This document shows, one piece after another, positions 2,558 to 11,821 of a stretch of DNA of 33,945 nucleotides. The DNA is taken from positions 1 through 33,945 of the forward strand of contig JAAFJG010000049.1 of assembly GCA_013298075.1 (NCBI GenBank), in the 5' to 3' direction. Under the pieces are notes generated by a model. That model was not told where the DNA came from, did no database searches, and was given only the letters and a program-made list of their open reading frames with translations. A program made the position numbers and the translations under genes. The DNA is from Cytophagales bacterium. GTDB lineage: Bacteria; Bacteroidota; Bacteroidia; Cytophagales; Microscillaceae. Each line of letters opens with the position of its first letter. The stretch's first letter is position 1.

Positions 2558-5038
2558 ATGTTACTTTCTACGCTTATCACACAAATTACTTTTGAAGATT
2601 ATCAATTTGAAAATCAAAATATTGAAATAGAATATTTATTGACAGATAGTCGCCAAGTTTTTTTTCCTCAAAATTCTTTATTTTTTGCTATTGATGGGCA
2701 AAGAAATGATGGACATTTATTTATAGAAGAATTGTATCAAAAAGGAATTAGAAATTTTATTATCGAAAAAAAAGAATTTCTACAACCTAAAAAATATCAA
2801 AATTCTAATTTTATTTATGTAAAAAATGCCGTTCAAACACTCCAAGAAATGGCTACTATTCATCGAAATAAATTTCAAATTCCAATATTGAGCATCACAG
2901 GAAGCAATGGAAAAACGATTGTGAAAGAATGGTTGAGCGAATTATTGGACGATGATTTTTCAGTTATCAAAAGCCCAAAAAGTTATAATTCTCAAATTGG
3001 CGTGCCACTTTCTGTTTGGAATATCAAATCTTATCACGATTTTGGAATATTTGAGGCAGGTATTTCGAAACCAAACGAAATGCAAAATTTGGCAAAAATC
3101 ATTCAACCTACTATCGGAATTTTTACTAATATTGGCTCTGCACACGATGAAGGTTTTGAAAATCGCACTCAAAAAATAGAAGAAAAATTACAATTATTTA
3201 AAAATGCAAAGCAAATTATTTATTGTGAAGATGAGATAGAAATTAAAAATAGCATCGAAAAAATATTACCCAATATCCAAAAAATCACGTGGACAACCAA
3301 AAATATAAACAATGATTTTTATATCGAATACAAAACTTCAAAACAAAAAACGACTATATATATTCACACAAAAAATGAAAAATATAAATTTATCACCAAT
3401 TTTATAGACAAAGCATCTTTAGAAAATATATCACATTGTTTGATTTTTTTATTGACGCAAACCAATTTTTCTGTCCAAAAAATAAATAAATCTATCCAAA
3501 ATTTGCAAGCAATTTCAATGCGTTTATCGTTAAAAAAAGGCATTAACGATTGTTATTTGATTGATGATAGTTATAATAATGATGTGGCAGGTTTGCATTT
3601 GGCTTTAGATTTTTTACAAAATCAACCACAAAAAAAACAAAATATTTTGATTGTTTCTGATATTTTAGAAAGCAATTTAAAAAATGAAAATTTATATATT
3701 TCGTTGGCTTTATTGGTCAAAAATGCAAAAATTGACGTTTTGATTGGCATTGGAAAAAATATTTCATTGGCTAAAAAACATTTTGAATGGATGGATACAA
3801 CTTATTTTTTTGACAATACAAACGATTTTTTGGTGTCAAATATATATCAAAATTTTAAAGAAAGTTTAATTTTAGTCAAAGGTGCGCGAACGTTTCAATT
3901 TGAAAAAATTATTCAACAATTACAACAAAAAACGCATCGAACTGTGTTAGAAGTCAATTTAGAAGCGTTGGTTCATAATCTTAATTTTTATAAATCATTG
4001 CTACAAAAAAATACGAAAATTATGGTAATGGTCAAGGCTTTTGCTTATGGAGCGGGCAGAATTGAGGTTGCTCATTTGTTGCAAAATCAAAGAATTGATT
4101 ATTTGGCGGTTGCGTATGCTGATGAAGGCGTAGATTTGCGAAATAATGGAATAAAATTGCCAATTATGGTCATGAGTCCTTCTGTGGATACATTTGAGCA
4201 ACTTTTTAAGTATCAATTAGAGCCAGAAATTTATAGTTTTAAGATTTTGAAAGAGTTTTTGGCGTTTGCTGAGAATAAAAATTGGAAAGATTTTAAAATT
4301 CATATCAAATTAGATACAGGAATGAATCGGTTGGGTTTTTTAGAAGAAGAAGTTTCTTTTTTGGCTGATTATTTAGCTCAAAATTTACCTTTTGCTGCAT
4401 CTGTAGCGAGTGTTTTTTCTCATTTGGCTGCTTCTGATGATTCAAAACACAATGAATTTTCGTATCAACAAATTGATATTTTTAAAAAATCTACGGCTAT
4501 TTTAGAAGATATTTTAGGATATAGTTTTTTGAAACATTTATGTAATTCGCCTGCGATAGTTCGATTTTCTGAGGCACATTTTGATATGGTGAGATTGGGA
4601 ATTGGTTTGTATGGCATCGAAACAAATGCTATTTTTCAAGATAAATTATTGCCGATTGCTACGCTTAAAACGACTATTTCGCAAATTAAACACGTAAAAA
4701 AAGGGCAAAGCGTAGGATATAGTCGGAGCGAAATAATGGAAAAAGATACAAAAATTGGAGTGATAAATATTGGTTATGCCGATGGATTTAATCGTTTATT
4801 GAGCAATGGCGTAGGAAAAGTATCCATCAATGGAAAAATTGCGAAAATTGTTGGGCGTATATGTATGGATATGAGTATGATTGATTTGAGCGAAATAGAC
4901 GCAGAAGAAGGCGATGAAGTGATTATTTTTGGCAATGAAATTTCTATTCAAGACCTCGCCAACGACCTCAAAACTATTCCTTACGAGATTTTGACAAGTG
5001 TGGGCGAAAGAGTAAAAAGGATATTTTTTAAAGAATAA
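2558..5038 (+). CDS. murF-alr: Bifunctional MurF (UDP-MurNAc-tripeptide:D-Ala-D-Ala ligase) / alanine racemase
   Basis: A cytoplasmic enzyme of peptidoglycan synthesis. The N-terminal half is a Mur ligase that adds D-Ala-D-Ala to UDP-MurNAc-tripeptide using ATP. The C-terminal half is a PLP-dependent alanine racemase that makes the D-Ala. With the ATG start the protein has 826 residues. TGSNGKT (114-120) is the ATP-binding loop, and LIDDSYNNDVAG belongs to the central ligase domain. The racemase begins near residue 460, with VMVKAFAYG carrying the PLP lysine (Lys493), then the VGYSR segment expected to hold the catalytic tyrosine, then NIGYADGFNR. This fusion is a known Bacteroidota arrangement. 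An in-frame TTG at 2537 was rejected because it lies in the promoter. The 3' end faces the lipoprotein gene across hairpin H1. Confidence 0.95.
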   Translation: MLLSTLITQITFEDYQFENQNIEIEYLLTDSRQVFFPQNSLFFAIDGQRNDGHLFIEELYQKGIRNFIIEKKEFLQPKKYQNSNFIYVKNAVQTLQEMATIHRNKFQIPILSITGSNGKTIVKEWLSELLDDDFSVIKSPKSYNSQIGVPLSVWNIKSYHDFGIFEAGISKPNEMQNLAKIIQPTIGIFTNIGSAHDEGFENRTQKIEEKLQLFKNAKQIIYCEDEIEIKNSIEKILPNIQKITWTTKNINNDFYIEYKTSKQKTTIYIHTKNEKYKFITNFIDKASLENISHCLIFLLTQTNFSVQKINKSIQNLQAISMRLSLKKGINDCYLIDDSYNNDVAGLHLALDFLQNQPQKKQNILIVSDILESNLKNENLYISLALLVKNAKIDVLIGIGKNISLAKKHFEWMDTTYFFDNTNDFLVSNIYQNFKESLILVKGARTFQFEKIIQQLQQKTHRTVLEVNLEALVHNLNFYKSLLQKNTKIMVMVKAFAYGAGRIEVAHLLQNQRIDYLAVAYADEGVDLRNNGIKLPIMVMSPSVDTFEQLFKYQLEPEIYSFKILKEFLAFAENKNWKDFKIHIKLDTGMNRLGFLEEEVSFLADYLAQNLPFAASVASVFSHLAASDDSKHNEFSYQQIDIFKKSTAILEDILGYSFLKHLCNSPAIVRFSEAHFDMVRLGIGLYGIETNAIFQDKLLPIATLKTTISQIKHVKKGQSVGYSRSEIMEKDTKIGVINIGYADGFNRLLSNGVGKVSINGKIAKIVGRICMDMSMIDLSEIDAEEGDEVIIFGNEISIQDLANDLKTIPYEILTSVGERVKRIFFKE

Positions 5039-9111: not shown

Positions 9112-9750
9112 TTATTTGAGAAATGGATTACTTATTTTTTCTACGCCAATCGTGGTCGGTTGTCCATGTCCTGTATAAATTACGTAGTCATCAGGCAACA
9201 AAAAAAGTTTATTTTTGATGCTATTCATCAAATCTTCGTGATTACACATCGGAAAATCTGTCCTTCCGATGCTTCCTTTGAATATCACATCGCCACCGAT
9301 AATAAATTTTTCGGCGTGATTGATAAAGGCTACATGTCCGGGTGCATGACCTGGCAAATGTAAGATTTCTAAAATCGTATTACCAAAAGTAATTTGTTGT
9401 CCTTCTTCTAAAAAAATATCTGCTGTTGATTCGTCATAAGGTGCTAAATTATACATTTTAGCAAGTGAGGAACAAGAAGCCAACACAGGCACATCTGCTT
9501 GATGAATAGCCAATTTTAAATCATAATTTTTTTGAAAATATAAATTACCAAATACGTGGTCTAAATGACAATGTGTATTTAATAAATGAACTAATTGAAT
9601 TTCTTCTTTTTCTATAAAATTGTCCAAAATACCTCTTTCAGCGTGCATTTGACAGCCTGGGTCTATGATAATTCCTTGTTTGGTTTCATCATATAAAATA
9701 TAGGTATTTTCTTGGAAAGCATTGAAAACAAAACTTTTGATATGTATCAT
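9112..9750 (-). CDS. Metallo-beta-lactamase-fold hydrolase (glyoxalase II-like)
   Basis: A 212-residue cytoplasmic metal-dependent hydrolase. The THCHLDH motif carries His60, His62, Asp64 and His65. Later ligand blocks are LHLPGHAPGHVAF, GGDVIFKGSIGRTDF and YTGHGQPTTIG. This is the short YcbL/glyoxalase II-like subgroup, whose members hydrolyse thioesters such as lactoylglutathione, although the physiological substrate is often unknown. The C-terminal glutathione-binding domain of classical GloB is absent, so GloB itself is unlikely. The ATG directly follows the stop codon of the upstream 52-residue gene with no gap, so the two form an operon read from the promoter near 9944. Confidence 0.88.
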   Translation of the reverse strand: MIHIKSFVFNAFQENTYILYDETKQGIIIDPGCQMHAERGILDNFIEKEEIQLVHLLNTHCHLDHVFGNLYFQKNYDLKLAIHQADVPVLASCSSLAKMYNLAPYDESTADIFLEEGQQITFGNTILEILHLPGHAPGHVAFINHAEKFIIGGDVIFKGSIGRTDFPMCNHEDLMNSIKNKLFLLPDDYVIYTGHGQPTTIGVEKISNPFLK

Positions 9751-9909
9751 TTATTTATTGATTTTTTTTGAAGTTCCTGCTATTACTTTATAAGCTACAT
9801 AGCCTCCACCAATCAAAAGTCCATACCAAAAAACAGCTTTTAACATAGTTAATGCAATCATTACTACTATTATTACTACGCCTACTTCGATTAAATCACT
9901 CAGTTTCAT
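9751..9909 (-). CDS. Small membrane protein, 52 residues
   Basis: A short gene of 52 codons. It starts MKLSDLIEVG, continues with two hydrophobic segments (about 8-25, VVIIVVMIALTMLKAVF, and 29-45, YGLLIGGGYVAYKVIAG) and ends in a basic tail TSKKINK. It should be a two-pass or hairpin inner-membrane protein. I recognise no family. Support for it being real: a good promoter immediately upstream (9944-9974), an ATG 34 bases from that -7 box, and a stop codon that touches the ATG of the hydrolase gene, a typical operon junction. Confidence 0.65.
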   Translation of the reverse strand: MKLSDLIEVGVVIIVVMIALTMLKAVFWYGLLIGGGYVAYKVIAGTSKKINK

Positions 9910-9943
9910 ATTTTTATATATTTAATTTTTTAGAATTTTTTTA

Positions 9944-9974
9944 CAAATGTAAATCTTTTTTTTATAAATACAAA
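9944..9974 (-). promoter_or_regulatory. Promoter of the small membrane protein-hydrolase operon
   Basis: Minus strand: TTTG (9974-9971), 19 bases, TACATTTG (9951-9944). It matches the TTTG/TAnnTTTG pattern and lies 34 bases upstream of the ATG at 9909. Confidence 0.6.
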
Positions 9975-10111
9975 AAATATAAGTTAAAATTAAAAAAATG
10001 TTTGGAGATAGACTTTTTGTTTTGGAAAATGTAAATATTTTTTTTAATTTTTAGGGAATTTGTATGGAAAATAAAAATATATTTCTTATATCTAATTTAT
10101 AAGTGAAAACT

Positions 10112-10150
10112 AAGGTATAACGCTTTGCTTAATACTTAAATCAGCTGGGT
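10112..10150 (-). repeat. Palindromic repeat P, copy A (diverged)
   Basis: On the minus strand it contains cccagctgatttaagtatta followed by agcaaagcgttatacc, the same order as copies at 10533 and 11515, but with a decayed left arm. It sits just past the stop codon of the 93-residue gene. Confidence 0.5.
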
Positions 10151-10155
10151 ATTAA

Positions 10156-10437
10156 TTATTCAACTTTTTTTGGTAATATTTTCCACTGAAAATACATTCC
10201 GTAATAAAGTTCATTACCAATTTGTATAATTATATCATATTTGGCATCATCATCAAGGTTTTTATAATGATTCCAAACAATATCACAAGCCCTCGTCATA
10301 TCCTCTCTTGTTAATATCTTACAATATTTAAAAAAAATTTCTCTTGCACCGTCATATTTTGAGTTAAAATTATTCAAGTTAACAGTTCCAATATAATCAG
10401 AGAATTCATCAGATAGATTTTTTATTGCTTCTTCCAT
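10156..10437 (-). CDS. Hypothetical protein, 93 residues
   Basis: A small, soluble, mixed-charge protein (MEEAIKNLSDEFSDYIG...), predicted mostly helical. It contains three Trp/Tyr-rich stretches (FFKYCKIL, IVWNHYKNL, LYYGMYFQWKIL) and has no signal peptide or recognisable motif. Start and stop are clear and repeats P-A and P-B flank it, which suggests an accessory cassette. Its reading quality (few rare codons, balanced composition) looks like a real gene, but I cannot assign a role. An immunity-type or orphan accessory function is possible but unsupported. Confidence 0.5.
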   Translation of the reverse strand: MEEAIKNLSDEFSDYIGTVNLNNFNSKYDGAREIFFKYCKILTREDMTRACDIVWNHYKNLDDDAKYDIIIQIGNELYYGMYFQWKILPKKVE

Positions 10438-10532
10438 GACTTTTGTGTATTTTTTATGTTTTTTTGATAATTATTTTCAGGCATTTCAAATAACGGTTTT
10501 ATTGAAATATTATTATTTTCTCATTTGTTATA

Positions 10533-10563
10533 GGTTTAAGTAACGTCGCTTAATACTTAAGCC
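10533..10563 (-). repeat. Palindromic repeat P, copy B
   Basis: Arms ggtttaagta and tacttaagcc pair with one G-T mismatch around an 11-nt centre. It lies 15 bases beyond the stop of the retropepsin-like gene and may serve as its terminator. Confidence 0.6.
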
Positions 10564-10577
10564 AGTTGGGCATGTTT

Positions 10578-10978
10578 TTATTCTATAATTTCTATAGTTT
10601 GATTAGGCAAATCGATAGTAAATTTTTTACCTTCAAAAAAATCTAATCCTAAATAACCTGCATATTCATTGCTTACATCAACATCTGCTACTTGTACCGA
10701 TTTATTTTCAAAAGTTATACCTAATGCTTGAAAAAATAAGTAAGAAAATGAATAAGAATCTATTGCACCTGAAGCGGTCATTATTCCACTATTTTTATTC
10801 TTTTTACTTGGTTTGAATCCTAATTTTTTTGCTTTGTGCGTATGTATTACCGTATGCGTACAACCTGTGTCTAAAACCATATAAAATCTATCTAATTCGT
10901 CATCTGCATAAAAAAAACTTCAATAAGTATAAGTTTTTCGTTTGAAAACTTAAAATCGATTAGTTGTATTTTTTTCAT
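10578..10978 (-). CDS. Retropepsin-like aspartic protease, frameshifted at a T8 run
   Basis: A small clan AA aspartic protease of about 132 residues, read in two frames. The first part starts at an ATG at 10978 (MKKIQLIDFKFSNEKLILIEV). At the eight T residues 10917-10910 the frame must shift by -1 to reach YADDELDRFYMVLDTGCTHTVI, where DTG is the catalytic triad motif, and the later GYLGLDFFEG, the second conserved block. Both parts fit one retropepsin fold, so the 100-residue frame starting at ATG 10880 is only the 3' part. The ATG at 10978 overlaps the stop of the 107-residue gene (ATGA), an ordinary coupling. Causes could be a one-base deletion, a homopolymer sequencing error or ribosomal slippage on T8. 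Such proteases act on unknown peptides. Confidence 0.7.
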
Positions 10979-11298
10979 TTTTCAGACGTAATTTTCCTAA
11001 CTGACGTAATTACTTTTATTGGTGGCGGAGCATTTTTTGGCATGATATATACAAAAGCAAAAGAAGTAAAATTATTTTTAGTTTTCACCTTTTTTTTATT
11101 TTTTAACCAAAAATTTGTAATCTCTTCATCTGTATCACCAAAAATAATAACACTTGATTTTATTTTTGTTAATGATTGATTGTCTGAACAACCCAAAATC
11201 AAATGTTTACCTTCATATTGTTTTTCAATATTTTCCCAAGTTTGCCAATTAGGTTCAAGTTGTATATTTTCCATTTCTTTTTCTTCTTGTTTTGTCAT
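10975..11298 (-). CDS. Hypothetical protein, 107 residues, coupled to the retropepsin gene
   Basis: A charged cytoplasmic-looking protein starting MTKQEEKEMENIQLEPNWQTW, with a possible second start at Met9 (11274). A central LILGCSDNQSL and SVIIFGDTDEEI may form beta strands, and the C-terminal part KNNFTSFAFVYIMPKNAPPPIKVIT is hydrophobic-mixed. I recognise no family. Its stop overlaps the retropepsin ATG by four bases (ATGA), so the two are one transcription unit and may act together. That the protease acts on this protein is speculation. The gene is followed upstream (11299-11514) by AT-rich sequence without clear features. Confidence 0.6.
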   Translation of the reverse strand: MTKQEEKEMENIQLEPNWQTWENIEKQYEGKHLILGCSDNQSLTKIKSSVIIFGDTDEEITNFWLKNKKKVKTKNNFTSFAFVYIMPKNAPPPIKVITSVRKITSEK

Positions 11299-11514
11299 GT
11301 TTTTATTTTTTTATAAAATATTATTTTCTATTTATAACGCAAACATAATCCATAAAAGTATATTTTATGATATATTGAGAGGATTTTTAGCACGTAAATA
11401 AAAACGAATAAATACAAAAAAATAAATCATTTCAAAATTTCTCTCGCTGTTTTTCGTCATTTTTAAGTTGATTTGTCATTTGTGTTAAGCCTTCAAATTT
11501 TTCATTATCTAACT

Positions 11515-11547
11515 GGTTTAAGTATTAAGCGAAGTATTACTTAAACC
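11515..11547 (+). repeat. Palindromic repeat P, copy C
   Basis: Perfect 10-bp arms ggtttaagta and tacttaaacc enclose a 13-nt centre (ttaagcgaagtat). Orientation is opposite to copies A and B, so the three copies bracket the orphan gene patch 10.1-11.3 kb. Confidence 0.65.
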
Positions 11548-11821
11548 CAAAAAACCGAAATCTCCCGACTTCACTATTCGAAGAATAGCAACTTTTACGA
11601 CTTTATAACGTTATTGTATTTGAAAAAAGTTTGTTTATTTTTTATTTTTTAATAAGTTTTTTAAGATACAAAGTGAGCATATAAATAAATGGTAAACAAT
11701 AATGGAAATAAACAAAAACATAGTTTAAAGTTAAAAAATGTAATTTTTCTTTTCTTTTGATACGTATATCAATAAGCAATCAATCCATATAACATTGCAA
11801 AAACTAAAACTTATTACTACT
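11548..11821. other. Intergenic stretch before the ABC permease
   Basis: AT-rich sequence with one short palindrome (ctattc-gaa-gaatag near 11575) and no exact TAnnTTTG box. A TTG codon at 11795 opens the permease frame nine codons early, but the ATG at 11822 is the better start. Confidence 0.4.

What the first reader, a model, noticed from the sequence alone, without database searches (positions are those of the whole stretch)
10578..10978. Retropepsin-like gene split by a -1 shift at eight T residues
The upstream frame (MKKIQLIDF...) and the downstream frame with the DTG motif together make one protease domain, and they meet exactly at a T8 run (10910-10917). Cellular retropepsin genes read through a slip are not something I know. 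T8 is also a classic indel and sequencing-error site.
Basis: partly seen in the sequence, partly recalled or inferred. Interest (0 to 1): 0.52.

Follow-up and report, generated by a model that had tools for sequence, protein, structure and literature searches.

The report
Frameshift-broken bacterial retropepsin gene copy
One of several copies of a small HIV-protease-like bacterial gene has lost its reading frame at a run of eight T's; intact and otherwise broken copies in this and related genomes point to an ordinary gene in decay (or a sequence error), not a programmed frame switch.

Summary
In detail: on the minus strand an ATG frame (28 codons, 10978-10892) and a -1 frame (113 codons, 10919-10578) meet at T8 (10917-10910) and together align with one bacterial retropepsin-like domain. 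A programmed slip is not supported. The nearest same-genus homologue (58% identity) and four paralogues in this genome are single intact frames; none of 12 intact copies has a T run of eight; no stimulatory RNA structure was found; and T8 runs are not depleted in this organism's genes, whereas runs of nine or more are. The protease is the second gene of a two-gene unit (small partner, then protease) matching PADLOC's phage-defence candidate PDC-M08: clearly for the protease, weakly for the partner. Of 22 partner genes examined, 12 are followed by an intact protease, 1 by one with an unclear end, 7 by a broken one and 2 by none; three of the broken ones are short remnants in this same genome. 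Best reading: a recent one-base indel inactivated this copy. A consensus error is the main rival and cannot be excluded without reads. Slippage rescue or phase variation lacks positive support. Repeated loss of the protease beside a retained partner is the more interesting by-product.

The parts
10975..11298 (-). Partner gene, 107 aa; its stop overlaps the protease start (ATGA). Intact.
   Evidence: family alignment; profile search; no Pfam match
10892..10978 (-). Frame-0 start of the protease: 28 codons and TAG stop
   Evidence: 8 of 19 residues identical to the intact homologue over the first 20 codons
10910..10917 (-). T8 run at which the frames part; in register as T_TTT_TTT
10578..10919 (-). 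Downstream -1 frame, 113 codons plus stop, with DTGC and YLGLDFF motifs (P0001)
10578..10880 (-). Part of the downstream frame from its first ATG (100 aa), 11 nt after the frame-0 stop; would lack the first strands of the fold

Best explanation
This is a broken copy of a single-domain bacterial retropepsin-like protease gene, the second gene of a two-gene unit (small partner protein, then protease) that is present in several copies in this Bacteroidota genome. A one-base length change in the T run parted the frames recently. As written it gives a 28-residue peptide and at best a re-initiated 100-residue fragment without the first strands of the fold, hence no working protease. Shown: the broken frame, intact paralogues, an intact same-genus homologue, and independent breakage of other copies. 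Inferred: that the lesion is a real mutation and not a consensus error, and that no useful full-length product is made.
For: Four paralogues in the same genome (35-45% identity) and the same-genus homologue (58%) are single frames. 7 of 22 partner genes are followed by a broken protease, with lesions of different kind and place: window frameshift; short N-terminal remnants at C69, C110b and C15 of this genome (C15 seen by eye only); internal deletion in G001 C233; deletion with frameshift in G004 C580; C-terminal remnant in G013 C427. A further copy in G001 C233 is frameshifted elsewhere and an Acidobacteria copy has two in-frame stops. 0 of 12 intact copies has a T run of eight or more. No stimulatory structure. 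T8 not depleted in genes: 43 observed, 40.5 expected.
Against: The downstream half shows no decay and no acceleration (relative-rate p > 0.15 with all nine outgroups, but only 12 to 22 informative sites each), as expected also for a consensus error or a product still made. Shorter runs (T6, T7) are in excess over the shuffles (1.34, 1.26), so T8 at 1.06 could be the start of a decline. No reads were available.
Confidence: 0.58

Rival explanations
1. Consensus or assembly error: the organism has an intact gene and the T run was miscounted.
For: The downstream half evolves like a living protein. GeneTack's authors expected singleton frameshifts validated by BLASTp to be sequencing errors rather than genuine indels (PMC3711429 section 29).
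Against: T8 occurs 43 times in 224 open frames of this genome that are not interrupted there, so the assembly is not generally wrong at T8 (those frames were chosen for being open, so this is weak). Three other copies in this genome are lost by lesions that a miscount cannot make.
Confidence: 0.25
2. Recoding: -1 ribosomal slippage on U_UUU_UUU, or RNA polymerase slippage on the run, makes some full-length protease from the T8 gene.
For: The in-register heptamer is present and the downstream frame is preserved. Transcriptional slippage on eight A's was suggested for IS elements of two species (PMC1088944, passages).
Against: The run is in none of 12 intact copies; no downstream structure (z 0.49, 136 of 200 shuffles fold as well, pseudoknots not tested); T8 not depleted but T9 (8 against 15.5), T10 or longer (0 against 8.5) and A9 (22 against 50.6) are, so the slippage threshold looks like nine.
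Confidence: 0.08
3. Phase variation: the run changes length by replication slippage and switches the protease on and off.
For: The run lies near the 5' end of the gene (nt 62-69), and the unit resembles a phage-defence candidate. G002 C37 has an in-frame T7 at the same place.
Against: The run is no longer than many others in the window and in genes and is not a family feature.
Confidence: 0.07
4. Split gene: the 100-residue piece is made by re-initiation at ATG 10880 and works alone or with the 28-residue peptide.
For: The ATG lies 11 nt after the frame-0 stop.
Against: The piece would lack strands 5-7 and 16-23 and the start of 31-37 of the modelled fold; none of the 12 copies counted as intact is split.
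Confidence: 0.02

Closest known systems
Bacterial single-domain retropepsin-like proteases: Pfam Asp_protease_2 (PF13650), NCBIfam TIGR02281; Rickettsia conorii APRc (PDB 5c9f)
   Same: DTG motif, hydrophobic-hydrophobic-Gly motif, and (intact homologue) the fold: Z 14.1, rmsd 2.8, 122 residues to 5c9f_A
   Different: The window copy is broken. No long N-terminal part as in APRc, which is predicted to be membrane-embedded (PMC4140852, passages). TIGR02281 score 34.3 is below its cut-off 57.95.
PADLOC phage-defence candidate PDC-M08 (A and B)
   Same: Two adjacent genes; protease matches PDC-M08B in 14 of 14 aligned members, best E 4.7e-14
   Different: Partner matches PDC-M08A weakly in 8 of 17 members, best E 1.5e-4, and not in the window's own. 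Defence is untested; it is a library label.
Retroviral -1 frameshift into the protease
   Same: A U_UUU_UUU heptamer in register before protease sequence
   Different: The shift falls inside the protease domain, is not conserved and has no structure behind it. The retroviral arrangement is recalled; a listing abstract on bovine leukemia virus protease mentions it.
Frameshifted pseudogenes and singletons of GeneTack (PMC3711429)
   Same: A frame transition confirmed by homology, with no conserved recoding signal (sections 28 and 29 read)
   Different: Here the same gene family also shows other, independent lesions in the same genome.

Membership tests
Retropepsin-like aspartic protease | Asp-Thr/Ser-Gly active-site motif after hydrophobic residues | tested here: met
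   MVLDTGC; D, T, G invariant in 11 and 14 aligned members. The next residue is C here; S, T or A in the consensus given for APRc.
Retropepsin-like aspartic protease | Downstream hydrophobic-hydrophobic-Gly motif | tested here: met
   GYLGLDFF; G, LGLDF invariant
Retropepsin-like aspartic protease | Retropepsin fold | tested here: met
   For the intact homologue only, not the window copy: pLDDT 90.0; 5c9f_A Z 14.1, HIV-1 protease Z 11.0
Retropepsin-like aspartic protease | One uninterrupted reading frame for the domain | tested here: not met
   Window copy only; frames part at T8
Retropepsin-like aspartic protease | Homodimer with protease activity | not testable with these tools
   needs protein
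Programmed -1 ribosomal frameshift | Slippery heptamer in register | tested here: met
   T_TTT_TTT in frame 0
Programmed -1 ribosomal frameshift | Site conserved among homologues | tested here: not met
   0 of 12 intact copies has a T run of eight or more; all are single frames
Programmed -1 ribosomal frameshift | Stimulatory RNA structure downstream | tested here: not met
   z 0.49 over 90 nt, no pseudoknots considered
Transcriptional slippage site | Run of a length that is selected against in this organism's genes | tested here: not met
   T8 43 against 40.5; depletion starts at nine. T6 and T7 exceed the shuffles, so a mild decline at eight is possible.
PADLOC PDC-M08 | Protease matches PDC-M08B | tested here: met
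   14 of 14 aligned members, P0001 among them
PADLOC PDC-M08 | Upstream gene matches PDC-M08A | tested here: inconclusive
   8 of 17 partners, best E 1.5e-4; window's own none
PADLOC PDC-M08 | Protects against phage | not testable with these tools
   Candidate label only; no paper with the name

The most novel reading that the evidence does not exclude
The partner-protease pair is an effector with its keeper: the retropepsin is costly when active and the upstream partner restrains or activates it. Bacteria therefore often lose or silence the protease while keeping the partner, and the T8 copy is a recently silenced, perhaps reversibly switchable, member of a retropepsin-based candidate phage-defence system.
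Probability: 0.1. Interest if true: 0.62.

Novelty: new member of a known kind. Interest (0 to 1): 0.18.

Why it matters
A programmed -1 shift inside a cellular retropepsin would have been a new way to control an HIV-protease-like enzyme in bacteria. The comparison shows instead one broken copy among several in a multicopy two-gene unit. What stays interesting is that unit: a small conserved partner of unknown function kept beside a protease that is lost again and again, filed so far as a phage-defence candidate in a profile library.

Tried and rejected
Programmed frameshift: set aside for lack of conservation, structure and tract avoidance. Rfam family near the junction: no match up to E 1 in 9700-11800. 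Fold of the partner: model pLDDT 78.5, no PDB match at E <= 0.001; this excludes nothing. DUF5678 for the partner: 1 of 10 Bacteroidota members at E 0.096 and 3 of 7 partners from other loci at E 0.0037, 0.005 and 0.11, all below the gathering score, so not filed there; 'DUF5678' occurs in 1 paper, on another subject by its title (listing). Rate of homopolymer frameshifts in the genome: a frame-switch scan of 434 kb (window and 20 other stretches of 4.71 Mb) gave 10 spots, most of them neighbouring genes by eye, but did not recover the window's own break, so it gives no rate. Flanking repeats as borders of a cassette: three copies lie around the pair, but one search lists none on C77, C115, C69 or C15, and those on C57 and C110 are over 8 kb from the pairs there, so dropped.

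Dropped rows and limits: the tally of 22 leaves out 11 of the 33 rows (E 2.7e-8 or worse); at most 16 candidates per genome were scored there, so copy numbers are lower bounds. Protease hits behind G001 C248 (E 0.001) and G013 C38 (E 0.013) were judged chance. The upstream scan missed the partner of L029. Literature on the pair: 'PDC-M08' 0 papers, 'retropepsin' with 'phage defence' 0 and with 'phage defense' 0, in the held library only. One genome per species is held and no reads, so variation of the run was not seen.

Full report
Observation. The window is contig C98 of a 4.71 Mb, 153-contig genome. On its minus strand a partner ORF (11298-10975, 107 aa) overlaps by ATGA the start of a second gene at 10978. 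That gene reads MKKIQLIDFKFSNEKLILIEVFFMQMTN and stops at TAG 10894-10892. The frame one base back is closed by TGA at 10922-10920 and then open for 113 codons to 10578, with the motifs DTGC and YLGLDFF. In the 25 nt in which the frame must change, T8 is the only run of three or more equal bases. In a codon-phase model the -1 frame scores +34.5 bits over 109 codons downstream and the other two below -150; the 20 upstream codons score only +1.1 in frame 0, still above -22.9 and -13.1.

What the gene is. The downstream piece matches Pfam Asp_protease_2 at 2.5e-10 and gag-asp_proteas at 2e-8, and TIGR02281 at 2.2e-8 but below that model's cut-off. The genome holds four further copies in single frames: C77 (45% identity), C110 (37%), C57 (36%), C115 (35%). 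Of 57 genomes searched, the window's own included, 10 have a match at E <= 0.001. The nearest, in the same genus, is 58% identical, an uninterrupted 135-residue protein with its own partner gene; the same place and identity appear in the named record RDXZ01000031.1, a Bacteroidetes MAG, from which I infer the phylum. An AlphaFold model of that intact homologue (pLDDT 90.0) aligns to Rickettsia conorii APRc with Z 14.1, rmsd 2.8 over 122 residues, and to HIV-1 protease with Z 11.0, rmsd 3.3 over 99. Strands 5-7 and 16-23 of the model, and the start of 31-37, would be missing from a product begun at ATG 10880.

Is the shift programmed? The heptamer T_TTT_TTT is in register, but I found no other sign. 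Of the 12 copies counted as intact, none has a T run of eight or more anywhere in the gene; the longest are T7, in G002 C37 at about the same place and in G001 C264 and C118 elsewhere (alignment of five copies). The 90 nt after the run fold no better than shuffles (z 0.49; 136 of 200 fold as well). In 224 non-overlapping ORFs of at least 200 codons (103,535 codons) from the window and 20 stretches of the genome, T8 occurs 43 times against 40.5 after synonymous shuffling and A8 143 against 137.6; T9 is 8 against 15.5, T10 or longer 0 against 8.5, A9 22 against 50.6, A10 or longer 4 against 25.7. Against my reading: T6 and T7 exceed the shuffles by 1.34 and 1.26, so a mild decline may begin at eight. 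Baranov and colleagues (PMC1088944; abstract and passages seen) give nine as the length at which selection against slippage is evident in many genomes, and note IS elements of two species in which eight A's seem to serve. So T8 is not a marked slippage site here, though low-level slippage is not excluded.

Decay is frequent in this family. The partner profile gave 33 rows in 13 of 291 genomes of the order. I examined the DNA behind the 22 partner genes with E <= 1e-16: 12 are followed by an intact single-frame protease, 1 (G004 C302) by one with an unclear end, 7 by a broken one, 2 by none. The seven: the window copy; in this same genome N-terminal remnants of 21 residues at C69 and 36 at C110b, and at C15 a frame with about ten recognisable residues (by eye only; the search gave none); an internal deletion in G001 C233; a deletion with frameshift in G004 C580; a C-terminal remnant in G013 C427. 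Outside the 22, a further copy in G001 C233 is frameshifted at another place, and in an Acidobacteria record a copy beside an open partner ORF has two in-frame stops. The sites and kinds of lesion differ, as in gene loss. Two partner genes also carry an in-frame stop (G004 C90, G013 C427), so the partner is not always spared.

How recent? Relative-rate counts between the window copy and its homologue are balanced with all nine outgroups (p > 0.15 each, with 12 to 22 informative sites, so low power). Differences at codon positions 1, 2, 3 are 31, 28, 59 in 113 codons downstream and 8, 5, 15 in 19 upstream. The copy evolved as a protein until very recently, or still does. This does not separate a fresh mutation from a consensus error or a product still made. 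GeneTack's authors expected BLASTp-validated singleton frameshifts to be sequencing errors rather than indels (PMC3711429; abstract and sections 28 and 29 read). I give a real lesion the edge because three other copies in this genome are lost by lesions that no homopolymer miscount could make; that is an inference.

The unit. Among 36 loci of the genome collection an upstream small ORF of the partner type was seen in 11: four in records of the same relatives (L026, L027, L028, L036) and seven elsewhere, named Chloroflexota (L030, L033), Planctomycetales (L037), Proteobacteria (L038), Bacteroidetes (L035), Acidobacteria (L054) and an unassigned bacterium (L032). Of the other 25, 22 have open frames of 231 residues or more. 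The two partner groups are related by profile comparison (probability 95.9, E 5.9e-9, 48 columns, 8% identity). PADLOC-DB names the protease PDC-M08B (14 of 14 members, best 4.7e-14) and the partner PDC-M08A weakly (8 of 17, best 1.5e-4, not the window's own). So the pair is already in a library as a phage-defence candidate; what such PDC labels mean I saw in passages of PMC11514479. The held papers gave 0 for 'PDC-M08' and 0 for 'retropepsin' with 'phage defence' or 'phage defense'. Characterised bacterial retropepsins that I saw include APRc (PMC4140852, passages) and RimB (PMC11957791, abstract and outline).

Verdict. Real observation, ordinary cause: an inactivated (or miscounted) copy of a known kind of gene. 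The partner retained beside repeated protease loss is the thread worth pulling.

Noticed in passing
window 10118-10151, 10533-10567, 11506-11570: Interspersed palindromic repeat (GGTTTAAGTA...TACTTAAACC hairpin, often beside a terminator-like hairpin). The core pattern with up to one mismatch has 41 hits in the genome against 1 for the pattern read backwards; several hits come as inverted or direct neighbours 0.2-2.3 kb apart around small ORFs.
   Followed up: partly
L008 (G004:C689) 422-2494: Three partner-protease pairs in tandem, all intact.
   Followed up: partly
L088 (G000:C69), L090 (G000:C15), L082 (G001:C248), L066 (G013:C38): Full-length partner genes with only a remnant of the protease or none behind them: the partner may have a function of its own.
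   Followed up: partly
L054 around 2880-3330: Protease copy with two in-frame stops beside an open partner ORF in an Acidobacteria MAG record.
   Followed up: partly
L130 10560-10565 and L124 18443-18448 (both genome G000): Two other places where the coding frame switches at a run of six: an 817-codon and a 536-codon frame meeting at T6 in L130, and a short frame that looks like a methyltransferase start (recalled motif) in L124. Neighbouring genes or further broken genes; not resolved.
   Followed up: no
L024 (G001:C233) 1762-2456: A small ORF and a PIN-like ORF (family by recall, VapBC-like) next to the two broken protease copies.
   Followed up: no
window 10156-10437 (-): 93-aa ORF without Pfam or PADLOC match, lying between two copies of the palindromic repeat.
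   Followed up: no
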